Counted from the stretch's first letter, positions 24,711 to 50,024 are shown. The stretch: DNA of 64,000 nt from Ignavibacteria bacterium (GCA_025612245.1 JAAXKQ010000012.1:1-64000); one strand, 5' to 3'. Made by a program: numbers and translations. The notes: generated by a model from the letters alone, not told the origin.

Positions 24711-24760
24711 CAGGCGGCTGATAAAAAAGAATTCTTTTTTTTCAGCCGCCTGCTTTTTTA
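24711..24760 (+). terminator. Intrinsic terminator between convergent genes
   Basis: Perfect 11-bp stem CAGGCGGCTGA (24711-24721) / TCAGCCGCCTG (24742-24752), with a further A/T-paired inner arm around GAATTC, then CTTTTTTATA on the plus strand. It ends transcription of the thioredoxin-like gene. It may also act for the minus-strand gene, but that side lacks a good U run. Confidence 0.85.
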
Positions 24761-27700
24761 TACGGGTAAAGCCGTGAGGTTTGCCTTCAGGTTGTTTAGC
24801 TTGTATTCGGAGCTGTCGGAAATTTCCTTTAGGTAACGGTTCAGGTAGTAGCTGTCCTTTATGTAGCTTAAAAGGGCAGTAGTGTTATTATCCTTTATAT
24901 CTTCAAGCCCGCACATGTAATTCATGATTCTTAGCGTAAGGCGCCAGTTTCCCAGCTCCTCAAGGTTTTCCTTGCTGTAGTACCATTCGCCTTCAAAATA
25001 GTTTACGCCGATAAAGGATTTTACTTCCTCGTCGCCAAGGAGCCTTTCAATCATTTCTCTTTCTTCCTTTTCAAGCTCGGTCATGGATGAAACCTTGTTG
25101 TCTGTTGCTTTTTCCGTGGCTTTGGAAGTGCTTCCTTTCTCACCCGGAGCCGTCTGTGGCTGACCGGACTTTCTTGCCAGGGAGGATTTATTCTTAATCA
25201 GCACTCTTATTAGCTTAACAACCTGGTCAATTTCATAAGAGCTTCTTCCCAGGCGGCTAAGGACCTGTGTAAGCGGCTTTATTAAGTACAATTCGTCAAA
25301 AAGCTCAATCGTACGCACGCCGTTGTCCTCTTTTTGCCTTAACATGCCAATGTCTTTAAGGCACAGCCACAGAGCGTAAATTAAAAGGTTTCTTGGATAA
25401 TTGGAGTCCTTGCTAAGAAGAAGTGAATTCCTAAAGTCGTTTGTAACAGCCTCGTTTTCAACAATTATTTCGTTTTCCAGGAGCATTTCATTTATGGATT
25501 TAATAGCATATAACCCGTTTCTGAAGTTGTTTGTAAGAGTCGGTACGATGCCGTTAGCCTGAATTTGATCTTTGACTTGGTTGATGAAAAATTCATACTG
25601 GTTAATTATGGGCTTCAGAGCTCTTTCTTCGTCCTTGAGTTCTTTTTCTTTTACAAAAATTTCAGTAACCAGTTCAATTGATTTATTGTCAAAAAGGTTC
25701 AGCATGGCTTCGTGTACTGAAGAGAGCCTGAGCTCAATTACGGTCTGTTCAATGCTTGGCACACCTGCGCCGTTAAGAGTTCTCCATATCTCTTCGTATT
25801 CTCCCGTTGCGTCATAAACCTCCCTGAAATCCAGGAACACGTTGTACTTAAAAGGCTTCAGGTGAATGAAAAGTCCCTTTTCTCCCATCTCGCGCCCGAG
25901 CCTGATGTATTCCAGGTTGGCTACAAGGTCGCGGTATATATAGAAAAATTTGTCCTCTGTCTTAAGCCCCAGGGCAGGGGCGAGGCTTGAATAAATTGTC
26001 GTCCTTTCTTCTCCTCCGTTGCCCGTAGGAACGGATTTTCCCGTGGTGCGGTTGATCCAGCCCGTGGTTTCGGAGAATTTATTGTTATAGACGACTATTG
26101 CCTTTTCATCGCCGAACTTGTTCGTATAGGCAAAGACGTTCTGGTTGACGTTTCCGTCACTTGTGTAGAAGTCGTAGAACCAAAAATTGTCCACCTGGCT
26201 GAACATGTATCTTTTTTTCATTAAGGGGAATATCTCGCGCCTGTGGCGGTCGACTAGGTATTCATTTATAAACTCGTTATAGTACGCTCTCTTGTATTCC
26301 ATCCCGTATTTTTCAGAATAGCCTTCAATCTGCCCGTGAGCGAACATGGGCAGGCCTGGTAGTGTAACCATGAGCGTGGCCACACCGAAATACTTGTCGT
26401 CAGTTCCGAACTGCCTTATTGCGGTTTCCTCGTCGGGGTTGCTCATAAAGTTAACGTAGCGCTTTAGTATTTCGGGATTAAATTCGAGCGTACTGGAAAT
26501 AACCTTGCGGTACTTTTCGTTTTCCTCTTTCATCATCATGTGCATAAATGCGCTGTTATAGACGCGGTGCATGCCGAGAGTGCGCACGAAGTAGCCTTCC
26601 ATGAGCCAGAAGGCTTCAGCCAGAAGCAGCGTGTCCGGCATCTCCTCGTTTATTCTGTCGACCACTTCACGCCAGAACTCTTTTGGGAAGAGCTGATCGA
26701 ACTCTTCCTGCCTCAGTCCGTAATCGCTGCGAGATGGAATGTCGCCTCCTGAACCCGGCTGCGGGTACCACAGGCGGTGGAAGTGTCTTTTTGCAAGCGT
26801 CATTGCGGCGTCAAAACGGATGATGGAGGTCTTTCTGGCTACGTGGAATATAGTCTGAATTACAGCCTCCCTGACGTAATCTTTCAGCATGTCCAACTGT
26901 GCCGTATCATTCCAGGGCATGTTGGTCCCGTCGTTGCCGTGGTAAATATAGCGGACTTCCCCCGTATTGTTATCAATTCTCTGAAAAACAACGGCTGCAT
27001 CCGTCTTAGTCCAGTATCCGTCCTCAATCCTTAGCTGTACGCTTGGGTCTTCGGACAAGTCAGGCCCGGTAAACCTGTAATTAGGGAAGGGGCTGTAGGG
27101 AGTCTGGATGAAGTAATCCGGGTGCTCTACGACCCACTTGGAAAAAATGCCCATGTGGTTTGGAACCATGTCACTTGCAAGCCTGATTCCTCTTTGCCGG
27201 CACCTGTAGTTCAGGTTCTGAAATGCGTGCTCTCCGCCTAAGTCGTATGCAATCATGTAATCATAGACGGAATAAGCCGATGGCACAGCTTCGGGGTTAC
27301 CCGTAAGCTGCTTAATTCTTTGTGAGGCACGGCTTCTTTCCCAGAGGCCAATGAGCCATAGCCCCGTAAAATTGAAGCCCGCCAGCATGTCCAGCTCCTC
27401 GTCGGGTATCTGGTCGAGGTGGGCTATATGCCTGCCGTATTTTCTTGAAAGCTGGTCGAGCCATACGTAAACATTCTTTGCCAGCAGCACAACCTGGGGC
27501 ATCCAGTGTACATCGGGAGTAAACCTTTCCGCCTCAAGGAAATCAAGGTGAGCGTCTTTGCCGTACCTGTAGCCCGACTTTCCGAGTGTAAGAAAATCCA
27601 AGTCACCCGCTCCTGACTTATACCGGGGAACGGCCGTAGGTGCTCCGCCGCCGCCGCCGAAAGCCCCAAGCCTGGCATCTTCCTTTATCATGTCCATGCC

Positions 27701-28495
27701 GCGAAGTAGCTTATCCAGGTATCTCAAGTCGAGAATAATCGACCAGCGGTTGGAGATAAACTTCAGCTGTTCTTCCAGGCTTTCCGGGTTTGCAATTATT
27801 GGCGTCCTCAGCAGGTCAAATATCGCCTGGTCGTCCGGTCCGTACTTCTTTTCTCCCATAAAGAAGTCTTCAAGCTGGTTGATAATCCTGGAATATGGGG
27901 TAAGAACCGTGAGTTCCTCGTCGCTGAAGAGTTCCTTAAAATCCCTGTTTGCCGGATTATAATTGGCAAAGAAAAGGAGCATCATCTCCTCCAGGACTAT
28001 TTCGGAGTTGGGCTTGCCCTCGTGGTAATTCCCGAGGTATTCTTCCGGGTCCTGATGATCTTTGTAGACTTCCATGGGTGGAAACTGCCTTACAAAACTA
28101 AGGAGTGTTCTTTTAAGCTCTTCCTCGCCTGAATTTTTCCTTACGAATTCCAGTGCTCTTCTGAAAACCTCCGGGTTGGCCTTCAGTTCATATTGACGCA
28201 ATACGTAGTGGTATATTTCATCCAGCAGTCCCATGGCGTTAATCTGTCCTGCCCTTAGAAAGTTCTCCGGCTTTCGGTTCTCGTTTAGTTTCTGGGCAAA
28301 AACGCGCGAAGCGTGGAAATTTGCAAAAATAACGTTCCCGTTAAAAGAGAAGATTGATTCATCAAATTTGTATTTATCACGTACTCTTTTTGAAATATGG
28401 AATTCAAAGCCTCGTTGCAAAGTGTGGATTTTTTCCGGTAGTCCGCCTTCCATCAGGCATACAGGGATGTTCAAAATCCCATCTTTTTTCTGCAT
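24758..28495 (-). CDS. Very large GH13 (alpha-amylase family) protein
   Basis: About 1245 residues, two to three times a normal alpha-amylase. The start chosen is ATG 28495 (MQKKDGILNIPV), preceded by ACAGGAA; a GTG at 28510 would add five residues. No signal peptide, so probably cytoplasmic. After about 400 residues of helical N-terminal sequence come the GH13 regions: I as SDMVPNHMG (about residue 447), II as IIRFDAAMTLAK with the nucleophile Asp (about 560), III as LLLAEAFWLMEG with the acid/base Glu (about 628), and IV as NFMSNPDEETA (about 685), where the usual NHD is NPD. HGQIEGYSEKYG follows. The last 400 residues are helical and contain a Ser/Thr/Lys linker (KSGQPQTAPGEKGSTSKATE). Action on stored glycogen or maltodextrin is likely but unproven. 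Confidence 0.88.
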   Translation of the reverse strand: MQKKDGILNIPVCLMEGGLPEKIHTLQRGFEFHISKRVRDKYKFDESIFSFNGNVIFANFHASRVFAQKLNENRKPENFLRAGQINAMGLLDEIYHYVLRQYELKANPEVFRRALEFVRKNSGEEELKRTLLSFVRQFPPMEVYKDHQDPEEYLGNYHEGKPNSEIVLEEMMLLFFANYNPANRDFKELFSDEELTVLTPYSRIINQLEDFFMGEKKYGPDDQAIFDLLRTPIIANPESLEEQLKFISNRWSIILDLRYLDKLLRGMDMIKEDARLGAFGGGGGAPTAVPRYKSGAGDLDFLTLGKSGYRYGKDAHLDFLEAERFTPDVHWMPQVVLLAKNVYVWLDQLSRKYGRHIAHLDQIPDEELDMLAGFNFTGLWLIGLWERSRASQRIKQLTGNPEAVPSAYSVYDYMIAYDLGGEHAFQNLNYRCRQRGIRLASDMVPNHMGIFSKWVVEHPDYFIQTPYSPFPNYRFTGPDLSEDPSVQLRIEDGYWTKTDAAVVFQRIDNNTGEVRYIYHGNDGTNMPWNDTAQLDMLKDYVREAVIQTIFHVARKTSIIRFDAAMTLAKRHFHRLWYPQPGSGGDIPSRSDYGLRQEEFDQLFPKEFWREVVDRINEEMPDTLLLAEAFWLMEGYFVRTLGMHRVYNSAFMHMMMKEENEKYRKVISSTLEFNPEILKRYVNFMSNPDEETAIRQFGTDDKYFGVATLMVTLPGLPMFAHGQIEGYSEKYGMEYKRAYYNEFINEYLVDRHRREIFPLMKKRYMFSQVDNFWFYDFYTSDGNVNQNVFAYTNKFGDEKAIVVYNNKFSETTGWINRTTGKSVPTGNGGEERTTIYSSLAPALGLKTEDKFFYIYRDLVANLEYIRLGREMGEKGLFIHLKPFKYNVFLDFREVYDATGEYEEIWRTLNGAGVPSIEQTVIELRLSSVHEAMLNLFDNKSIELVTEIFVKEKELKDEERALKPIINQYEFFINQVKDQIQANGIVPTLTNNFRNGLYAIKSINEMLLENEIIVENEAVTNDFRNSLLLSKDSNYPRNLLIYALWLCLKDIGMLRQKEDNGVRTIELFDELYLIKPLTQVLSRLGRSSYEIDQVVKLIRVLIKNKSSLARKSGQPQTAPGEKGSTSKATEKATDNKVSSMTELEKEEREMIERLLGDEEVKSFIGVNYFEGEWYYSKENLEELGNWRLTLRIMNYMCGLEDIKDNNTTALLSYIKDSYYLNRYLKEISDSSEYKLNNLKANLTALPV

Positions 28496-28623
28496 AAATA
28501 TTCCTGTCACTTGTAATTAGAAGAAAAATAAAGCCCTCTTCACTGGCAAAAAATCTTAGTCGCAATGCCCTTTAAGATGCATTGCTGCTAATATATCAAT
28601 TAAACATACCTCGAATGAAAATC

Positions 28624-34803: not shown

Positions 34804-34841
34804 GATGCATGTCATTTTTTATCTTTAGCAAGAGACTCTCT

Positions 34842-36533
34842 ATGATCCGGAATCTTTTTCGCAATTTACTGCAAAAAGTTGAATTTAACATAAATATTTG
34901 CCTGATCTTTCTGGTAATTTGTCCCTTTGCATTTATTTATTCCTCTGATAATGTTTTTATCAGGTTAAATCAGGTGGGCTTTCTGCCCGGGGACATAAAA
35001 ACGGCGGTCATTATCACTACCGGGGAAATCTCAAGAGGGGAATTCAGCATCTTTGAGGAACAGGGCAAAAGTGCCGTCTTTACGGGACCCCTGGGCCCGG
35101 TCCTGAAAGGTGAAGGCAGGTTTAAGTTTAACTACAAAATAGATTTTTCAGGATTCAGCAAACCGGGGAAATACGTAATCAGATGCGGAGGTGCAAAGTC
35201 ACTTCCATTTTTGATCGGAAGCGGCGTTTATCAGGGCATTACGGATTCTCTTTTGGCGTTCTTCAGGGTCCAGAGATGCGGCTATACGGCTCCGTTTTTG
35301 CACGGTATATGCCACATTGCAGATGCAACCAGCCTGATCGGGGCAAAGCCTCAGCAGGCGGGAAAGTTCGACCTTACGGGAGGCTGGCACGATGCAGGAG
35401 ATTACGTCAAGTTTTTCAATACTACGGCGTTTTCTACTTATATGATGCTCTTTTCGTTTGAATTTGACCCCGTGAAGTTCGGCTTTGATTCTAACCACAA
35501 CGGTGTTGCAGACATACTGGAAGAGGCAAAGGTAGGGCTCGACTGGCTTTTAAGGGCCCACCTGGGGGGCGAAAGATTTGTAATTCAGGTGCAGGATTTG
35601 AGGGACCATGAACAGGGATGGAGGCTGCCTGAGGAGGACAAGCTGACTTTTGACCGTCCGGCATTTTTAGGGGGAGGAAAGAATACGGCCGGAATATACA
35701 GCGCCGTTATGGCACTGGCCTCAAGGATTTGGAAAAACAGCCTGCACTACGATGAGTTTGCAGATAAATGCCTTAAGGAAGCCCTGAATGCGTATGCGGC
35801 CTCGGGAAAAATGCCCGACCTTGACAAGAGCGGAACCGGGATGTATCTCGATTCAAAGTTTCAGGGCAAAATGGCACTTGGTGCAATTGAGCTCTATGAG
35901 AGTACAAAAAATGCCAGCTACCTTAATGAGTCCATTCAGTTTGCTGAAGAGGCTAAGTCCGACTACTGGTGGAGCTGGGGAGATATGAACTCGGTTGCCG
36001 ACTATAAAATAGCAAAATACGAACCCGGCATTAAAAATTATTTGTTTAATAACCTGAAAAACTTTAATGAAATTAAAAATAAGAGTATTTTTGGGGAAGC
36101 TGCTTCAGACAACTGGGGCTTGAATACTGCCCTGATGGGGGCTGCCTTTCAGGCTGCCTTGTGGAAAAAACTGACAGGCAGCAGCAGTTTTGATTCTTTA
36201 ATGACGTTTCAGAGGGATTACATCTTGGGCAAAAACCCCTGGGGCGTGAGTTTTATCTATAATATAGGGAAAGTCTTTGCCAGGAATTTCCACTCCCAGG
36301 TCGGTTTCCTGAATAAAGGATATCTCCCGGGTGCTGTAGCTGCAGGCCCGGTAAGCAGAAAAAAACTGGAGGGCTATAAAATAAAAATAACCGAAGGGGA
36401 TCCCTTTAAGGAATTTCAGACAGATTCGGCGGTTTATCAGGACAGCAGGCAGGACTACGTTACAAATGAGCCTTCAATTTCGACCAACGCAACTGCACTG
36501 TTCTTGTTCGGCTACTTCTCAGGAAAACCGTAG
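34842..36533 (+). CDS. Secreted glycoside hydrolase family 9 (cellulase / endoglucanase type)
   Basis: Predicted beta-1,4-glucanase exported by a long signal peptide or membrane anchor (hydrophobic ICLIFLVICPFAFIY after a basic N-terminus). ATG 34842 gives 563 residues; ATG 34809 is possible. An N-terminal Ig-like CelD_N domain (RLNQVGFLPGDIKTAVI to about residue 110) precedes the (alpha/alpha)6 barrel. The catalytic Asp pair lies in GGWHDAGDYVKF, the substrate-binding histidine region in ARNFHSQVGF, and the proton-donor Glu in TNEPSISTNATAL, all at the expected places; DYILGKNPWGVSFIY is also diagnostic. It may degrade external cellulose or beta-glucan, or edit a self-made polymer. Confidence 0.92.
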   Translation: MIRNLFRNLLQKVEFNINICLIFLVICPFAFIYSSDNVFIRLNQVGFLPGDIKTAVIITTGEISRGEFSIFEEQGKSAVFTGPLGPVLKGEGRFKFNYKIDFSGFSKPGKYVIRCGGAKSLPFLIGSGVYQGITDSLLAFFRVQRCGYTAPFLHGICHIADATSLIGAKPQQAGKFDLTGGWHDAGDYVKFFNTTAFSTYMMLFSFEFDPVKFGFDSNHNGVADILEEAKVGLDWLLRAHLGGERFVIQVQDLRDHEQGWRLPEEDKLTFDRPAFLGGGKNTAGIYSAVMALASRIWKNSLHYDEFADKCLKEALNAYAASGKMPDLDKSGTGMYLDSKFQGKMALGAIELYESTKNASYLNESIQFAEEAKSDYWWSWGDMNSVADYKIAKYEPGIKNYLFNNLKNFNEIKNKSIFGEAASDNWGLNTALMGAAFQAALWKKLTGSSSFDSLMTFQRDYILGKNPWGVSFIYNIGKVFARNFHSQVGFLNKGYLPGAVAAGPVSRKKLEGYKIKITEGDPFKEFQTDSAVYQDSRQDYVTNEPSISTNATALFLFGYFSGKP

Positions 36534-36668: not shown

Positions 36669-37955
36669 ATGAAAAGAAGTATACAATTAGTGCAAACCGG
36701 TTTACCCCTGATTGACCAGGCTTGGGGAGGATTTTATAAAGGGGGAACATATCTACTCATTGGTCCAAAGAAGTCCGGGCGTACGCTCCTGGGCCTGCAG
36801 TATGCTATGCAGTCTGCAAGGCAGAAGGAAGTCTGCTTGTATTTTACCAATATGCGGCCTAAAGACCTGATGATACACGCAGCCTCAATTGATTTCGACA
36901 TCCAGACTTATATGAATCAGAACCTCATAGTTGTTGTTCGTGTAACTCCGCCGGTTGACTTGTACGACCTTCGCGATCCGGATGAATACCTGATTGAATA
37001 CTTAAAAGATATAGTTACTGTTGTCGAACAGTTTGCGCCAAAGAGAATAATCTTTGATGAGCTTACGCCTTATATCGGTTTCAGTAACCTGAATTTACTC
37101 AGGGAGTCATTTCTTGAGACCCTGGAGAATATAGAGCAAAGGGACGTCACGAGCCTCTTTACTATCGGCGAACCCGCAACACCGGTTGCACAGTCAATCG
37201 TGGACGAGCTCGTGCAGCACGTTACGGCTACAATCTATCTGCAGAAAAAGATTACTCCAGGCGACTATAAGTCACAGGGTGGAAAGATGACAATTACTCC
37301 CAATATCGGGCATACGGAAGGGCAGTTTACTGCAAACTATTCAATTGAGCCCTACAAGGGAATTATTACTGACTTCAAGCCCGCATGGCCGCAGCAGGCT
37401 GAACACACCTCAATGCAGGTGGAAACTAAACAGACTCCCCCCAGTGAGGAAGGCGGCTATCAGTCCTTGTCCGATTTTGACACTTTCCAGGAACCGTACT
37501 CGTTTTCGAATTTTTATGAGTATAACGACTTTCTCCTCCTTTTGAACAACCAGATCGCATTGTACAAAAGCACGGGACAGGTTTTCTCCTTAGTATCCTT
37601 TAAGCTGGACTCGGCGGCTGAAAAAGAACGCCTCATTACAATAAACCAGCTCCAGAATGCCGTCAGGCTTTCTACGGATAAAAAGGACAAAATCTGCGTC
37701 TACGACAACAAGGTCATTGTACTTCTAATCAGGAGTGACAAAAAAAGCCTTGCGGGGCTGGTTGCAAAAATCCAGGCTAATTTCCCTTCAAGCGACAAGA
37801 ATTATATAAAGGCTGTACAGCAGTATATTTCGGTTTTAACCGTGGAAGTCGATGAAAGCGTTGAAAATGCCGAGTCCTTCATGAAAATTGTGCTTGGTGA
37901 AGAATACCGGAGTGATAAAAATAACGACTCATTTAACAGGTATAATTCCAACTGA
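36669..37955 (+). CDS. KaiC/RecA-like ATPase-fold protein with degenerate GGDEF-like C-terminus
   Basis: 428-residue cytoplasmic protein. The N-terminal 230 residues have the KaiC/Rad55 fold: GLPLIDQAWGGFYKGGTYLL, Walker A as GPKKSGRT with Arg in place of the catalytic Lys, and Walker B as KRIIFDELTPYI. After a Pro/Ser/Gln linker, residues about 285-415 resemble a GGDEF domain stripped of its motif: LNNQIALYKSTGQVFSLVSF aligns with the domain start, and KICVYDNKVIVLLIRSD lies where RYGGDEF is expected. It may therefore be a regulatory pseudoenzyme. ATG 36669; its stop overlaps the next gene (TGATG), so the two are translationally coupled. The GGDEF relation is my inference. Confidence 0.75.
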   Translation: MKRSIQLVQTGLPLIDQAWGGFYKGGTYLLIGPKKSGRTLLGLQYAMQSARQKEVCLYFTNMRPKDLMIHAASIDFDIQTYMNQNLIVVVRVTPPVDLYDLRDPDEYLIEYLKDIVTVVEQFAPKRIIFDELTPYIGFSNLNLLRESFLETLENIEQRDVTSLFTIGEPATPVAQSIVDELVQHVTATIYLQKKITPGDYKSQGGKMTITPNIGHTEGQFTANYSIEPYKGIITDFKPAWPQQAEHTSMQVETKQTPPSEEGGYQSLSDFDTFQEPYSFSNFYEYNDFLLLLNNQIALYKSTGQVFSLVSFKLDSAAEKERLITINQLQNAVRLSTDKKDKICVYDNKVIVLLIRSDKKSLAGLVAKIQANFPSSDKNYIKAVQQYISVLTVEVDESVENAESFMKIVLGEEYRSDKNNDSFNRYNSN

Positions 37956-40822
37956 TGAAAAAAATTATTCTTTTTATATTCTTTCTGTCTTCAGCCTTAG
38001 TAACTCTATCTGCTCAGACGAGTCAGTTTGCCTTGAAGTCAGAAGCTATGAAGCAGATCAGGGCAGGTAGCTTCGGTGAAGCAATTGATCTGCTTAATAA
38101 ATACGTTGCTGCTTACCCGCACCTTTCCGACGGGCTTAATTTAAGGGGCTTCTGCTTTGAAAAAAGGGGACAGTATGGCGATGCCCTGCTGGATTACAAA
38201 CGAGCACTCCAGCTCAGCCCTAACAACTCTGAGATCAAGAAAAACCTCGCACGCGCGGAAAATGTGTGGAACGCCCTGCTGTATAAAAAAATTGAGGGCC
38301 ATAAAAGGGAAATTGCCATAAATCCGAACAATCCCGTCAACTATCTGGAAATCGGGAAATGCATGAAAAACCTGGGTCGCTGGAAAGAAGCCGAAAGCTG
38401 GTACGACAACTATTTGTCGCGTGCAAAGGCCTCTCCGGACGAAATCATCAGGTACAGTGAGATCCTGGCTCACAATAATAATATCTCCAAGGGGGAGAAA
38501 ATCCTGAAAACCTATACCGAACACTACCCCGACGACCAGAGACTCTGGAGCAGATACGGATTTTTTACCATGTGGCTCGGCAAATATAAACTGGCAATTA
38601 AAGCCTTTGAAAACGCACTCGCAATAAAACCCTTCTTCAAGGAGGCCCAGGACGGGCTTGACCAGGCAAAAGGACACGGCTACATTTTTGAGTGGACGGA
38701 TACCACGGCAAGGCACAAGCGCAATAATGTTGCTAAGGTTAAGGAATATCCGGTTGACAAATATTACAGAATAATCAAGAAAAATCCCTCGGACGACAAT
38801 TCAAGATTCCTTCTGGTTGACGAACTGATGAAGGTTAAGAGATATGAAGAGGCCTACCAGCAGCTTCAGGCACTCTCCAGGAGCCACAGCGACGAGCAGA
38901 AGTTCCAGGCTCTCTATGACAGCGTTACCGCTTTGAGGGAGAACCTGGCAAAACAGAAAGTTGAAGAGTATAAAGCACGCATTGAAAAGGACCCCAAGGA
39001 CAAGGAAGCCGTTCTGGCTCTGGCCGACGCCTACAGCGGGCTTTTTGACTATGACGGCGCCGTTAAAGTGCTGGAGGATTACCTGGCGCAAACGGAAAAC
39101 ACCGATAACCCGGAGGCCAGGTTCAAAATTGCAAAATATGCCGGATGGAACAGGGATTTCGGCAGGTCGCTGGAGCAGGTTAACTTTTTGCTCGGGAAAG
39201 ATCCCGACAATCTTCAGTACCAGCTCCTGAGAGCACAGCTTGCCGTATGGACCAGCCAGGACTATGACGTGGCTGAAAAATACCTCTTGAACGTGGTTCA
39301 AAAAGAGCCCGAAAACATTGACGCACTGCTTGCCTTCGGAACGCTCAGGACAAATCAGGACAATTTTGACGAGGCAAAAAAATACCTTGAAACGGCACGC
39401 GCTGTTGATTCATCAAGCAAATATGTAGAACAGTTAAGCACATATCTTTCGGCTTCTATCTCAAGGGCAGAAGAAAGAAAAATTTTTGAAATCCTTGAAG
39501 AGGGAAGAAAAATCCTCGTCGAAAAGCACGACTGCGCAGAGGCACTGCCCAAGTTTGATGAGTATTATTCAAAGGCTCCTGCAAACCGACTTTTCCTCAT
39601 GGAATATGCAGATGTGTATGCATGCCTTAATAACTATTCAAAAGCCGTTGAGCTTTATACACAGGCTTTGAATGATGAGTACAGCTTTGATGCCGCCTAC
39701 GGAAGGGCTAAGGCTTACCTGTGGGGAAAGGATTCCATTAACGCATTAAATGAGTTTAAGAAGCTTGCCGCCGAGGCACCGGATAACTTCGAGGTCCACA
39801 TGCTGCTTGGCGACTCTTACTATGCCATGCACCAGTATGACGAAGCCAGGGAGGTTTACGACAGCCTCTTGGATAAAACGACCGATTCGGCACAGGTGGC
39901 TCTCATTCAGCCCCGCTATAGCTGGCTTCCTGCCTCGGGCTTCAGGACTTTCTTTGCAACCTTCCCGAATTATGTCGGCATTGCACCGCAGTATAACTAC
40001 TATTCGGATAATATGAACCTCAGGTTCCAGAATTCCGGGGGAAGACTTGAAGTTGGCCTGACGGGCTTTCTTTCCGCCGGCGTTACATTCATCAGGGGAA
40101 GCCTGAGCTCCAAGACGGCCTCGAACAACTATTCCTCTTTCCAGGGAAATCTCTATCTCAGGCTTTCACGCTATATGATGCTCTCGGGCGGCTTTGGTAA
40201 CCTGACGTACAGGGGAACAAAGAATACTTCCATCTCCGATGCGAGCCTGAGATTCGACAGGGATAGTAAAGAAAATAAAATTCATGTCAATGGAAACTAC
40301 CAGAGGACAGATGCCGGCTTAATACTGTTCTCGACGCGCCTTATAGATTACAGGACACTGGTTGATATGTTCAGGTTTCAGGGAAGCTTCCAGAATAAGT
40401 ACGGACTGAAATTGTCTGGCCTGTTTGACTACCTGAAGCTTTCCGACGGCAATGCCGCCAACGACCTGCAGCTCAGGCTGGGAAAAGCTTTTGAAGAGGA
40501 TATTACGGTAGGATATGAATACAGCTATACCAATTATTCCAGGAAATCCAACTATTACTATTCACCCAGGAATTTTGAGTCGCATAGCCTCTGGGGAGAA
40601 TGGATGCTTGAAAACAGCCAGGATCTTGAAGTTACCCTTGGCGCAAAACTGGGCTACGTACCGATGAGCGATTTTATAATGAGAGAGATTTCAGGTATGG
40701 TTAATTACAAGATATTTAAGTCGCTGACACTGATGGGAAGGCTGAATGCCGGGGGAACATACCGCTTTGATGCTGCCTATAATTACGTTTCCGGAACCGT
40801 TTCGGCTTTCTGGTCGTTCTAA
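37955..40822 (+). CDS. Outer-membrane TPR protein with C-terminal YaiO-like beta-barrel
   Basis: 955 residues with a signal peptide (MKKIILFIFFLSSALVTLSAQ). Residues about 25-640 are TPR-type helical repeats (for example GEAIDLLNKYVAAYPHLSDG and YDEAREVYDSLLDKTT). From about 650 the sequence changes to alternating beta strands rich in Tyr, Ser and Gly, ending in aromatic WSF as outer-membrane barrels do. This resembles the TPR-plus-porin design of exopolysaccharide exporters such as BcsC and PgaA, and the YaiO family barrel. It overlaps the ATPase-fold gene by one base. Polysaccharide export or surface assembly is a guess from architecture. Confidence 0.82.
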   Translation: MKKIILFIFFLSSALVTLSAQTSQFALKSEAMKQIRAGSFGEAIDLLNKYVAAYPHLSDGLNLRGFCFEKRGQYGDALLDYKRALQLSPNNSEIKKNLARAENVWNALLYKKIEGHKREIAINPNNPVNYLEIGKCMKNLGRWKEAESWYDNYLSRAKASPDEIIRYSEILAHNNNISKGEKILKTYTEHYPDDQRLWSRYGFFTMWLGKYKLAIKAFENALAIKPFFKEAQDGLDQAKGHGYIFEWTDTTARHKRNNVAKVKEYPVDKYYRIIKKNPSDDNSRFLLVDELMKVKRYEEAYQQLQALSRSHSDEQKFQALYDSVTALRENLAKQKVEEYKARIEKDPKDKEAVLALADAYSGLFDYDGAVKVLEDYLAQTENTDNPEARFKIAKYAGWNRDFGRSLEQVNFLLGKDPDNLQYQLLRAQLAVWTSQDYDVAEKYLLNVVQKEPENIDALLAFGTLRTNQDNFDEAKKYLETARAVDSSSKYVEQLSTYLSASISRAEERKIFEILEEGRKILVEKHDCAEALPKFDEYYSKAPANRLFLMEYADVYACLNNYSKAVELYTQALNDEYSFDAAYGRAKAYLWGKDSINALNEFKKLAAEAPDNFEVHMLLGDSYYAMHQYDEAREVYDSLLDKTTDSAQVALIQPRYSWLPASGFRTFFATFPNYVGIAPQYNYYSDNMNLRFQNSGGRLEVGLTGFLSAGVTFIRGSLSSKTASNNYSSFQGNLYLRLSRYMMLSGGFGNLTYRGTKNTSISDASLRFDRDSKENKIHVNGNYQRTDAGLILFSTRLIDYRTLVDMFRFQGSFQNKYGLKLSGLFDYLKLSDGNAANDLQLRLGKAFEEDITVGYEYSYTNYSRKSNYYYSPRNFESHSLWGEWMLENSQDLEVTLGAKLGYVPMSDFIMREISGMVNYKIFKSLTLMGRLNAGGTYRFDAAYNYVSGTVSAFWSF

Positions 40823-40847: not shown

Positions 40848-40887
40848 AGAAGCCGGCATTTGGATTTTGCCGGCTTCTGAAGTTTTT
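40848..40887 (+). terminator. Intrinsic terminator after the TPR-barrel gene
   Basis: Perfect 11-bp stem AGAAGCCGGCA (40848-40858) / TGCCGGCTTCT (40868-40878) with a nine-base loop, followed by GAAG and five T to 40887. It closes the two-gene unit that starts at 36669. Confidence 0.88.
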
Positions 40888-43253: not shown

Positions 43254-43471
43254 GTCAGCTGTCCCAAAATGCAGAGCTAAGGCCCGGCTTGTGTTTTGGT
43301 TAAATCAGCCCGGTAAAGTTTATAAATCGCCTGGAATTTTTCACGCCTTTTTAGGAACCTGCCGCATGTTTTCAAGTTATCCAATTATGTATTGTAAGTA
43401 ATAAAGGAAAAAGTAACTTATAATTGATAAATATGTTTCTTTTTTTATGCTTCATCATTTCCAAGTATAAG

Positions 43472-45601
43472 ATGGGACATTTAAGTAAAAATATACTGCT
43501 TTGCATTTTGCTCGCTTTTACACGGGTCTTTTCACAGTCTCCGCCTTTTCCGGAAAATCAGCTTTACCGGGGCGGGCTGGAATACCTGAAGAGGCACGAC
43601 CTTCAAATGGCTGAGAGAAGTTTCAAGGAATCAGTAAGGAAGTATTCCGATGCCGCGTCAATGTTCGAGCTTGCAAAACTCTACAGCAATGAGAACACCA
43701 TTTCCGGGCGCGACCGCGCAAGAGACCTCGTTCAAAGGGCAATCTGGAAGGAGCCGAAGAATATAGAATACAGGATGCTGCAGGCTTCTTTGGCCGAAAA
43801 GTTCGGCCCTTCGATGGCCTTTGACAGATATGAGAAGATAACTGAGATCGACAGTACATGCGCCAGGGCCTGGTTTAATATGGGCAGGATTAAGGAGGCG
43901 GACTTCAATGAGTATCATAACTCGGTTTTTATGGAAGACGCTGAAAGCCCCCAGTTAAGCTATGAGAAATTTGCAAAAGAAGACATGCAGGAGGCAGAAG
44001 GATACTTCAGGAAAGCTCTTCTGTATGATCCTAAAAATCTGGATGCAAGGCTTCATCTGGCATTTTTGTTTGAGGACGCAGACCTTCCGGAAAAAGCCAT
44101 ACCCCTGCTTTGGGAAATGTGCAGGATCGATTCCTTGAACAAGGATGCCCACCTCTACCTCGGTCTAATATACTATAAAACCTCAAAGATCAAGCAGTCC
44201 TACGAGGAGTACAAAAAAGCCTTAAGGCTTATGTCTTATGATGAAGAAACGGACTTTACATTTAATTCGGTTAAGAAACTCCTTGAGCCGCTGCTTGGCG
44301 AGGAGTACAGAAAGTATTCGGACGGGGAGCTAAGGGAAATTATTGACCTGTACTGGAAGGTGAACGACCCGTTGAACCTTACAGAATACAACGAAAGACT
44401 GCTTGAGCATTATTCGCGCGTGGCATACGCAAACCTGCGCTTTACGAGCAAGACTGACAAAACACCCGGCTGGAAGACTGACAAAGGAGAAGTGATACTA
44501 CGATACGGCGACCCCATACGCAAGCTCCGCCTGAGGCCGCATATAAATGCCGGCGGAAGGACGACTGTAATGATGAAGACCGATGTCTGGCAGTACAATG
44601 GTCTTTCATTTGGCTTTACTGACGACTATATGTCGGGCAATTACAGGTTCAGCGTGCCTTCCTTTGGAAGCAGATATATCTCCCAGTATCCCGGAGATTC
44701 ACAGTGGCTCATGGAATACTTAAGAAGGGTAAAGTACGAAGACTACGCTCCAAAGTACGACGGCCCGGCCTTTAGGCTTCCGTATTATATCGTGCAGTTC
44801 AAAGACCTGGAAAAAGAAGGCTCCACGGATATTTATGTTACTTATGCCCTGGATTTCCCGGACAGCGTAGTTAAAAACAGGAAGTTTACCAGTGCCCACA
44901 ATTACGGCATATTCCTTACTGACAGAAACTACGAAACAGTCTTTGGAAAGAAAAGCAATGTTGCAGGCCTGCCCGAGAAAAGTAAAATTACCATTCCTTT
45001 CGACAAGGACTATTATGTAAATGCAGTTTCTGCCGTGGCTTCTCCCGACTCCGGGATGCTTGCCTTTGAGGTGGTGCGGGATATAGACAGCGGGGTTGCC
45101 TCAAATCATAAGCGCTTTAAGGTAAGGGAGTTTGCACCAGGTGAGTTTTCCGTAAGCGACCTCCTCCTGGCCTCAGGTCTGAGTTCCGGCAGCCTGGAGG
45201 GTTCAGTGCTGAAAAGAAAGGATATAAGCATAATTCCTAATCCGTTAAACACGTTTTCCAGGGCACAAAACCTTTACCTTTATTATGAGGTTTATAACCT
45301 GAAGTTAAATAAAGACCAGAAGACAGACTTTTTGCAGAAAATAACGGTAAGTAAAGTTGAGGATGAATCGGCTCTTAAAAAGGTATTTAATGCCATTACC
45401 GGAGTGCTGGGCCTTGGAGGCAGGAAAAAAGAGGAAGTGTCCCTGACTTCTAGATATCAGACCAGTCAGATAAACGCGCAAGTATACGTTCAGCTGGATA
45501 TGAGCGAATACGAAGCAGGGGAATACCTGGTGCAGACAATTATTATTGATAACCAGACGCAGAAGGAATCCAAAGCGGAGACACTGCTGCACTGGAAATA
45601 A
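43472..45601 (+). CDS. TPR and GWxTD-domain exported protein
   Basis: About 709 residues from ATG 43472, which gives a normal signal peptide (NILLCILLAFTRVFSQS); earlier TTG/ATG codons (43424, 43433) would add a second hydrophobic stretch. N-terminal TPR repeats (about residues 25-300, for example EAEGYFRKALLYDPKNLDAR) lead into a GWxTD domain: TPGWKTDKGEVILRYGDP, then DVWQYNGLSFGFTDDYMSGN. The C-terminal third is beta-rich and holds FRLPYYIVQFKD and YLYYEVYNLKLN. GWxTD proteins are found mainly in Bacteroidota, Ignavibacteria and Acidobacteria; their function is unknown. Single gene with 218 bases of unremarkable AT-rich sequence before it. Confidence 0.8.
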   Translation: MGHLSKNILLCILLAFTRVFSQSPPFPENQLYRGGLEYLKRHDLQMAERSFKESVRKYSDAASMFELAKLYSNENTISGRDRARDLVQRAIWKEPKNIEYRMLQASLAEKFGPSMAFDRYEKITEIDSTCARAWFNMGRIKEADFNEYHNSVFMEDAESPQLSYEKFAKEDMQEAEGYFRKALLYDPKNLDARLHLAFLFEDADLPEKAIPLLWEMCRIDSLNKDAHLYLGLIYYKTSKIKQSYEEYKKALRLMSYDEETDFTFNSVKKLLEPLLGEEYRKYSDGELREIIDLYWKVNDPLNLTEYNERLLEHYSRVAYANLRFTSKTDKTPGWKTDKGEVILRYGDPIRKLRLRPHINAGGRTTVMMKTDVWQYNGLSFGFTDDYMSGNYRFSVPSFGSRYISQYPGDSQWLMEYLRRVKYEDYAPKYDGPAFRLPYYIVQFKDLEKEGSTDIYVTYALDFPDSVVKNRKFTSAHNYGIFLTDRNYETVFGKKSNVAGLPEKSKITIPFDKDYYVNAVSAVASPDSGMLAFEVVRDIDSGVASNHKRFKVREFAPGEFSVSDLLLASGLSSGSLEGSVLKRKDISIIPNPLNTFSRAQNLYLYYEVYNLKLNKDQKTDFLQKITVSKVEDESALKKVFNAITGVLGLGGRKKEEVSLTSRYQTSQINAQVYVQLDMSEYEAGEYLVQTIIIDNQTQKESKAETLLHWK

Positions 45602-48578: not shown

Positions 48579-50024
48579 ATGTTTGAATCCGTGCTGGAAT
48601 TTTTCAGCGATTTAATAAAGAACATTCGTTTTGTTGATCTTCTTGATATCGGAATCGTTTCTTTCTTTTTATATACATTTATTAACTGGTTCAGGAAAAG
48701 CGCTTCAAGAAGGCTTTTAATTGCAGTGACCATTTTTATTGTGGTTTATCTCCTGTCCAGAATATTTGGCCTGTACCTGACTGAAATGCTGATCAAGATT
48801 GTAATTGGCGTTATACTGATTGCGGCAATTATTCTCTTCCAGTCGGACATAAGGCGCCTTATAGATCTCATAGGCACATGGGGAGGCCTGAGGGGTTCAA
48901 AGAGGACCGGGATCCTGAATACATCGGTCGATACCATTATTTCAGCCTGCTCAAAAATGGCAGAAAAGCGTGTAGGAGCGCTTATTGCAATAAGAGGGCG
49001 TGAGATATGGGATAACTGCATCAATGGCGGCATTGAGCTCGACGGTAAATTGAGTCAGCCCCTTTTATATAGCATATTTAACACCAAGTCGCCCGGTCAC
49101 GACGGCGCCATACTTATTGAAGACAACAGGATTATTAAGTTCGGTGTCCACCTGACTCTTTCTACAAACCTGAAGGAGCTTAGTGTGGGTGGAACGCGCC
49201 ATGCTGCTGCACTGGGGCTTTCGGAAAAGTGCGATGCATTTGTCATTGCAGTTTCAGAGGAAAGAGGAACAATAAGCGTAGCCGAAGACGGAAAGCTTAA
49301 GATCATGTCCTCAAGCAGCGAGCTAAAGGAAAGAATTGAAAGTTTCTGGGATAAAAACTTCGGTAAAAAGGAAGAAACAATTTCAAGGTGGTGGAAAAGC
49401 AAGAGCCTTCAGACGGCAATTGTTGCAGTGTTTCTTTCCATGGTCTTCTGGGCACTGTTTGCTTACCAGTCGGACAAGATTTATAAAAGCTATACCGTAC
49501 CGATTGAATTCCGCAATCTGCGGCCTGACCTGGCCTTGGAAGACCCCATTCCAATTGAAGGAAGGGTTACTTTATCCGGCTCTGAACAGGCATTCAGGCT
49601 TTTTAACTCAAATAACCTGAACATATCAATTGACATGGAAAGGCTTGAAAAAGGGGAAAACGAAATCATGGTTGCAAGAGACAACCTGGAACTCCCCTCA
49701 GGCATTAACCTCTACAGGGTAGATCCCCGCGTACTTAAGATTAAGGCCTCAGCAATGAAACTGGTGCGCGTGCCCGTAAAGGTGCAGGTAACAGGCAGGA
49801 TGCACAAGAATCTGAGCCTCTATGCTGAACCCGGATATATAATGCTGAAAGTACCTGCAAACAGCTATAATGTACCCAGGTATGTTTCCACGGAACCTGT
49901 GGATCTTTCAGAGGTCAGTGAATCATCTGCCATTCCAAGCAGACTTATTCCGCCAAAGACCGCAAGGCTTCTGCCGGATCAGAGTCCAGAGATAACCGTC
50001 AGGGTTCAGGTTCCAAACAGGTAG
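48579..50024 (+). CDS. cdaA: Diadenylate cyclase CdaA fused to YbbR (CdaR-like) domains
   Basis: 481 residues. The N-terminal 270 are CdaA: three membrane helices (about 22-95) and a DAC domain that makes c-di-AMP from two ATP. It carries GHDGAILIEDNRI (the DGA motif) and GGTRHAAALGLSE, the counterpart of RHRAA..SE, then FVIAVSEERGTISVAEDG. A further membrane helix (about 273-290, TAIVAVFLSMVFWALFAY) leads to an extracytoplasmic region of about 190 residues with YbbR-like repeats (VPIEFRNLRPDLALE; VPVKVQVTGRM..). In Firmicutes CdaA and its regulator CdaR are separate adjacent genes; here they appear as one chain, with about two YbbR units instead of four. AGAGG precedes ATG 48579. Confidence 0.9.
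   Translation: MFESVLEFFSDLIKNIRFVDLLDIGIVSFFLYTFINWFRKSASRRLLIAVTIFIVVYLLSRIFGLYLTEMLIKIVIGVILIAAIILFQSDIRRLIDLIGTWGGLRGSKRTGILNTSVDTIISACSKMAEKRVGALIAIRGREIWDNCINGGIELDGKLSQPLLYSIFNTKSPGHDGAILIEDNRIIKFGVHLTLSTNLKELSVGGTRHAAALGLSEKCDAFVIAVSEERGTISVAEDGKLKIMSSSSELKERIESFWDKNFGKKEETISRWWKSKSLQTAIVAVFLSMVFWALFAYQSDKIYKSYTVPIEFRNLRPDLALEDPIPIEGRVTLSGSEQAFRLFNSNNLNISIDMERLEKGENEIMVARDNLELPSGINLYRVDPRVLKIKASAMKLVRVPVKVQVTGRMHKNLSLYAEPGYIMLKVPANSYNVPRYVSTEPVDLSEVSESSAIPSRLIPPKTARLLPDQSPEITVRVQVPNR

What the first reader, a model, noticed from the sequence alone, without database searches (positions are those of the whole stretch)
36669..40822. Translationally coupled pseudo-KaiC / GGDEF-like regulator and TPR-barrel outer-membrane protein
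Seen: a KaiC-like fold whose Walker A Lys is Arg (GPKKSGRT), with a C-terminus that looks like a GGDEF domain without its motif, overlapping by one base a 955-residue TPR plus beta-barrel protein, with a terminator after the pair. Known: TPR-porin proteins such as BcsC and PgaA export exopolysaccharides, and GGDEF domains or their degenerate relatives often control that process. Inferred: this may be a two-gene surface or export system controlled by a nucleotide-sensing pseudoenzyme, not one I can name.
Basis: partly seen in the sequence, partly recalled or inferred. Interest (0 to 1): 0.68.

Follow-up and report, generated by a model that had tools for sequence, protein, structure and literature searches.

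The report
Dead clock-type regulator of sugar-polymer export
Two overlapping genes encode a catalytically dead clock-protein (KaiC-like) and signal-enzyme (GGDEF-fold) fusion and an outer-membrane export pore; across Ignavibacteria and some related classes they sit with, and almost only occur with, a gene set for making and exporting a surface sugar polymer, so the fusion probably controls that export in bacteria that seem to lack the usual control signal, cyclic di-GMP.

Summary
ORF 36669-37955 is a KaiC-fold domain (Z 26.8 to KaiC) with Walker A Lys replaced by Arg (58 of 67 homologues) and the KaiC catalytic Glu pair lost (67 of 67), joined by a disordered linker to a GGDEF-fold domain (all top Foldseek hits; Z 10.9 to PelD) without the motif. 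It overlaps by 1 nt a TPR plus predicted beta-barrel protein, and an 11-bp hairpin with T5 follows. The pair is not free-standing: in 76 of 80 named relatives the pore gene follows the regulator, usually within GH9 / KaiC-GGDEF / TPR-porin / (SGNH) / GT2 synthase / small TM / deacetylase-like / FnIII / histidine kinase. In the window's genus this cluster is split over two loci. Over 395 genomes the regulator and the deacetylase-like gene co-occur (50 both, 4 regulator only, 0 deacetylase only). The architecture recalls E. coli BcsE, but without detectable sequence similarity or a REC domain, and the order has no EAL or PilZ hits in 21 genomes and only one, motif-degenerate, GGDEF protein per genome. 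Best reading: a BcsE/PelD-like scaffold-regulator of a synthase-dependent exopolysaccharide machine, not read by canonical c-di-GMP. Function is inferred; no paper found describes it.

The parts
34809..36533 (+). GH9 glycoside hydrolase (endoglucanase family) with CelD_N domain; conserved upstream neighbour of the regulator
   Evidence: PF00759 E 2e-73, PF02927 E 2.3e-17; directly upstream of the regulator in 67 of 80 relatives
36669..37955 (+). regulator ('KAI'): pseudo-KaiC domain + GGDEF-fold domain, 428 aa
36669..37388 (+). residues 1-240, KaiC (CII-like) fold
   Evidence: VIA-align Z 26.8, rmsd 2.4 over 216 residues to 7s65 KaiC
36762..36785 (+). degenerate P-loop GPKKSGRT (residues 32-39)
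   Evidence: Arg at position 38 in 58 of 67
36849..36860 (+). residues 61-64 NMRP in place of the KaiC E-E-S/T-P catalytic Glu pair
   Evidence: HMMER alignment to KaiC; no homologue of 67 has EE, Arg63 in 67 of 67
37044..37061 (+). Walker B RIIFDE (residues 126-131), kept in the order
   Evidence: D130 and E131 invariant
37515..37901 (+). residues 283-411, GGDEF-fold domain without GGDEF motif
   Evidence: AF2 pLDDT 90.8; top matches GGDEF domains, PelD Z 10.9
37955..37955 (+). one-base overlap TGATG of regulator stop and pore start
   Evidence: -1 or -4 nt gap in 37 of 76 relatives
37955..40822 (+). TPR plus predicted beta-barrel outer-membrane export protein, 955 aa
39905..40819 (+). predicted beta-barrel part (residues 651-955)
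   Evidence: amphipathic strand count, aromatic C-terminus
40848..40878 (+). intrinsic-terminator-like hairpin, T5 at 40883-40887

Best explanation
The first protein is a cytoplasmic scaffold-regulator of a synthase-dependent exopolysaccharide secretion machine, and the second is that machine's periplasmic TPR scaffold and outer-membrane channel. The KaiC-fold domain probably oligomerises, perhaps as a ring, and may hold a nucleotide without turning it over; the GGDEF-fold domain probably docks onto the inner-membrane GT2 synthase (or its small TM partner), as GGDEF* of BcsE docks BcsQ. The polymer made by the GT2 would cross the periplasm past the deacetylase-like protein and TPR repeats and leave by the barrel, with GH9 trimming it. 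Shown here: folds, lost catalytic residues, gene order, co-occurrence. Inferred: oligomerisation, docking, regulation, export. A canonical c-di-GMP input is unlikely in this order.
For: KaiC fold and GGDEF fold, PelD among the best matches. Conserved order GH9-KAI-OMP-(SGNH)-GT2-sTM-DEAC-Fn3-HK; core KAI-OMP-GT2-DEAC also in several other-class genomes of the phylum. GT2 is nearest to PgaC/IcaA, E 2.7e-61 but below that model's cut-off; DEAC hits polysaccharide deacetylase E 9e-7. Co-occurrence of regulator and DEAC over 395 genomes: 50/4/0/341; outside the order 13/3/0/339. Four regulator-lacking genomes of the order also lack a close GT2 orthologue. In the window genome the GT2-sTM-DEAC-Fn3-HK half is intact on another contig. 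Published precedent for the architecture and role: BcsE (PMC7439463).
Against: No experiment. No sequence similarity to BcsE. The polymer is unknown: the synthase resembles PgaC, the hydrolase is a GH9 cellulase type, and the deacetylase-like protein appears to have lost the NodB metal motifs. Walker B is intact in the order, so ATP binding or hydrolysis is not excluded. Fisher tests ignore relatedness of genomes.
Confidence: 0.62

Rival explanations
1. A true BcsE/PelD-type c-di-GMP sensor: the GGDEF-fold domain binds c-di-GMP through an I-site-like patch and switches the synthase on.
For: Fold and setting match BcsE and PelD. Arg333 and Asp340 sit where the I-site Arg and Asp lie and are conserved (56 of 67; 65 of 67), though 6 residues lie between them rather than 2. 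Several distant relatives have a proper RxxD there (RNTD, RPAD, RRGD, RPQD, RPKD).
Against: No PilZ and no EAL hit in 21 genomes of the order; one GGDEF-family protein per genome in 30, and 24 of 24 inspected lack GG[DE]EF. Of 16 genomes with distant relatives only one has a GGDEF match.
Confidence: 0.1
2. An active ATPase: despite Arg in the P-loop the KaiC-like domain cycles ATP (conserved Lys35, intact Walker B) and powers assembly or transport.
For: Lys35 invariant, FDE invariant; 9 of 67 homologues keep the Walker A Lys; KaiC-only tandem paralogues with GKT exist.
Against: Catalytic Glu pair lost in 67 of 67; distant relatives have N-D in place of D-E in Walker B and no Thr after the Arg (read by eye).
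Confidence: 0.13
3. The regulator acts on expression or on another process (for instance surface sensing through the cluster's histidine kinase) and is in the cluster only because it is co-expressed.
For: A PAS histidine kinase-receiver protein belongs to the cluster.
Against: Co-occurrence with the synthase set holds where gene order is broken (G000, G001) and in other classes; no DNA-binding domain was found.
Confidence: 0.15

Closest known systems
BcsE (E. coli type II cellulose secretion)
   Same: KaiC/RecA-like N-domain with degraded Walker A plus a degenerate GGDEF domain, in a synthase-dependent exopolysaccharide system with a TPR-barrel exporter and an endoglucanase (PMC7439463; gene list)
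   Different: No REC domain (disordered linker instead); no detectable sequence similarity; c-di-GMP machinery apparently missing; no BcsR/BcsQ/BcsF seen next to it
PelD (Pel polysaccharide)
   Same: Degenerate GGDEF fold regulating a synthase-dependent exopolysaccharide; Z 10.9, rmsd 3.1 over 120 residues
   Different: PelD has GAF and TM helices and binds c-di-GMP; this has a KaiC domain
KaiC
   Same: Fold, Z 26.8; sequence E 3.8e-21
   Different: Single domain, catalytic Glu pair lost, P-loop Arg, fused to a GGDEF fold
BcsC / PgaA exporters
   Same: TPR scaffold then predicted beta-barrel; TPR part aligns to BcsC
   Different: Only the TPR part aligns; below the NCBIfam cut-offs for PgaA and BcsC
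pga operon (PNAG)
   Same: PgaC-like GT2, deacetylase-like protein, small TM protein, TPR porin
   Different: GH9, KaiC-GGDEF regulator, FnIII and kinase; deacetylase-like protein seems catalytically dead

Membership tests
KaiC / RadA-type RecA-fold ATPases | KaiC/RecA fold | tested here: met
   PF06745 E 6.6e-23; Z 26.8
KaiC / RadA-type RecA-fold ATPases | Walker A GxxxxGK[ST] and catalytic Glu pair | tested here: not met
   GPKKSGRT; Arg in 58 of 67; EE replaced in 67 of 67
GGDEF (diguanylate cyclase) superfamily | GGDEF fold | tested here: met
   the 22 Foldseek matches with E<=0.001 are GGDEF-domain proteins
GGDEF (diguanylate cyclase) superfamily | GG[DE]EF active-site motif | tested here: not met
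   YDNKV at that place; absent from the alignment
BcsE | sequence homology to BcsE (PF10995) | tested here: not met
   no PF10995 hit at E<=1; hhalign probability 0.2% to E. coli BcsE, single-sequence template
BcsE | RecA/KaiC-like N-domain with degraded Walker A plus degenerate GGDEF domain | tested here: met
BcsE | REC domain between the two | tested here: not met
   residues 242-278 have pLDDT under 50 and no fold
BcsE | c-di-GMP binding | not testable with these tools
   needs binding assay; genome context argues against
BcsC/PgaA-type TPR exporters | signal peptide, TPR superhelix, C-terminal outer-membrane barrel | tested here: inconclusive
   TPR clear; N-terminus looks like a signal peptide; barrel only by strand periodicity and aromatic C-terminus
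Polysaccharide deacetylase (neighbouring cluster gene) | NodB metal-binding motifs | tested here: not met
   TFDDG and HxxxH positions not conserved in aligned homologues (read by eye)

The most novel reading that the evidence does not exclude
A class of exopolysaccharide-synthase regulator built from two dead nucleotide-enzyme folds (KaiC and GGDEF) that works without c-di-GMP, either as a pure protein scaffold or by reading another nucleotide; BcsE and PelD would then be the c-di-GMP-reading cases of a wider use of the fold.
Probability: 0.35. Interest if true: 0.78.

Novelty: new variant of a known kind. Interest (0 to 1): 0.6.

Why it matters
BcsE and PelD are textbook cases of degenerate GGDEF domains that sense c-di-GMP to switch on polymer export. 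Here the same kind of domain, again joined to a KaiC-like fold as in BcsE, is a core part of an exopolysaccharide gene set in bacteria that seem to lack c-di-GMP enzymes and PilZ receptors. If right, it separates the scaffold role of such domains from ligand sensing, gives a name and a test for a gene set present in nearly every Ignavibacteriales genome examined and in relatives, and offers a comparison for how BcsE arose.

Tried and rejected
Two-gene export system: rejected, the pair belongs to a larger cluster that is split in the window's genus. BcsE membership: rejected by sequence and by the missing REC domain. c-di-GMP control: made unlikely. Profile search of the C-domain against PDB sequences gave only chance-level hits such as AP-2 beta; the relation to GGDEF is by fold only. 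Foldseek with the full-length model listed only KaiC, so the C-domain was folded alone. The terminator scan missed the hairpin. A search with wrong coordinates failed. A 38-residue stretch of L146 entered by mistake means nothing. Literature searches for KaiC with exopolysaccharide in Ignavibacteria or Bacteroidetes gave nothing.

Full report
What is in the sequence. ORF 36669-37955 (regulator, 428 aa) and ORF 37955-40822 (pore, 955 aa) overlap by one base in TGATG. A perfect 11-bp hairpin at 40848-40878 with T5 shortly after ends the unit. Upstream, 135 nt away, is a GH9 glycosidase (34809-36533); downstream is an unrelated sodium:solute symporter.

Regulator, N-domain. Pfam finds KaiC (E 6.6e-23). 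The AF2 model (67 homologues, pLDDT 86) matches KaiC CII at Z 26.8, rmsd 2.4 over 216 residues. The P-loop Lys is Arg in 58 of 67 homologues; nine keep Lys. In the HMMER alignment to KaiC the catalytic E-E pair falls on N61-M62; no homologue has EE, and the next residue, Arg63, is invariant. Walker B D130-E131 is invariant in the order but reads N-D in most distant relatives. ATP hydrolysis therefore looks lost; nucleotide binding is open.

Regulator, C-domain. Residues 277-412 modelled alone (pLDDT 90.8) match GGDEF domains: best Foldseek E 3.8e-5, all 22 hits at E<=0.001 are GGDEF proteins; VIA-align Z up to 11.8, PelD Z 10.9 with the lowest rmsds of the leading rows. The GGDEF motif is absent. 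Sequence profiles do not find the relation, so it rests on fold. Between the two domains lies a disordered linker, not a REC domain.

Pore. TPR repeats are clear; the TPR part aligns to E. coli BcsC. The last 305 residues have the strand periodicity and aromatic end of an outer-membrane barrel; no structure was predicted.

Neighbourhood. In 59 genomes (the window's genome and relatives, mostly of the same order) the regulator is found in 56 and the pore in 56; one of the 56 regulator matches (G056) is only a weak hit to an ordinary two-domain KaiC. In 80 named relatives (Ignavibacteria, Melioribacter and others) the pore follows the regulator in 76, and GH9 precedes it in 67. The usual order is GH9-regulator-pore-(SGNH)-GT2-small TM-deacetylase-like-FnIII-histidine kinase. 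Regulator, pore, GT2 and deacetylase-like gene stay together in several genomes of other classes, where the regulator's C-domain is recognisably the same (hhalign E 2.5e-9). In the window's genome the GT2 half is on contig C15 (L161), and the sister species shows the same split (L162).

Co-occurrence. Over 395 genomes of the phylum: regulator and deacetylase-like gene both present in 50, regulator alone in 4, deacetylase-like alone in 0 (two weak partial hits not counted), neither in 341. Genomes are related, so the Fisher p-values overstate the evidence; outside the order the table is 13/3/0/339. Four genomes of the order without the regulator have no close orthologue of the GT2.

Signal. The order shows no PilZ and no EAL match in 21 genomes, and the same searches ring in control genomes. 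Each of 30 genomes has one GGDEF-family protein; in 24 of 24 inspected the GG[DE]EF motif is missing, so diguanylate cyclase activity is not expected. HD-GYP was not searched. Of 16 genomes with distant regulators one has a GGDEF match. Some distant regulators carry RxxD at the I-site position, which may be a relic or may bind something else.

Interpretation. The arrangement works like BcsE (KaiC/RecA-like domain with degraded Walker A plus degenerate GGDEF, PMC7439463) but is not a BcsE by sequence and lacks REC. I take it as a scaffold-regulator of a synthase-dependent exopolysaccharide machine. The polymer is undetermined: GT2 resembles PgaC, GH9 points to beta-1,4-glucan, and the deacetylase-like protein seems dead. 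I found no paper that describes this system, within the library's limits.

Noticed in passing
window 48579-50024 (+): CdaA-like diadenylate cyclase (DAC domain E 5.2e-36) with a YbbR-like match: the organism probably makes c-di-AMP. No link to the regulator was tested.
   Followed up: no
L165:1998-3845 and equivalents in 30 genomes: Every Ignavibacteriales genome searched has exactly one GGDEF-family protein, in the four full-length examples read an N-terminal TM-like stretch, apparently GAF-like middle and a degenerate motif; conserved even where the regulator is absent (G024).
   Followed up: partly
L161:11803-13701 and homologues: Deacetylase-like cluster protein seems to have lost the NodB catalytic motifs: a further apparent pseudoenzyme in the same gene set.
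   Followed up: partly
L042-L046, L048: A second pore paralogue without the regulator lies in another cluster, in most cases with MBOAT and SGNH genes (O-acylation type) and an M23 peptidase.
   Followed up: no
L027:6914-7843, L049:12432-13265, L050:12717-14579: Tandem KaiC-only copies next to the full-length regulator lack the GGDEF-fold domain; some have a GKT P-loop.
   Followed up: no
window 24758-28510 (-): 1250-aa protein with an alpha-amylase domain.
   Followed up: no
window 43424-45601 (+): 725-aa TPR protein with a GWxTD domain just downstream of the symporter.
   Followed up: no
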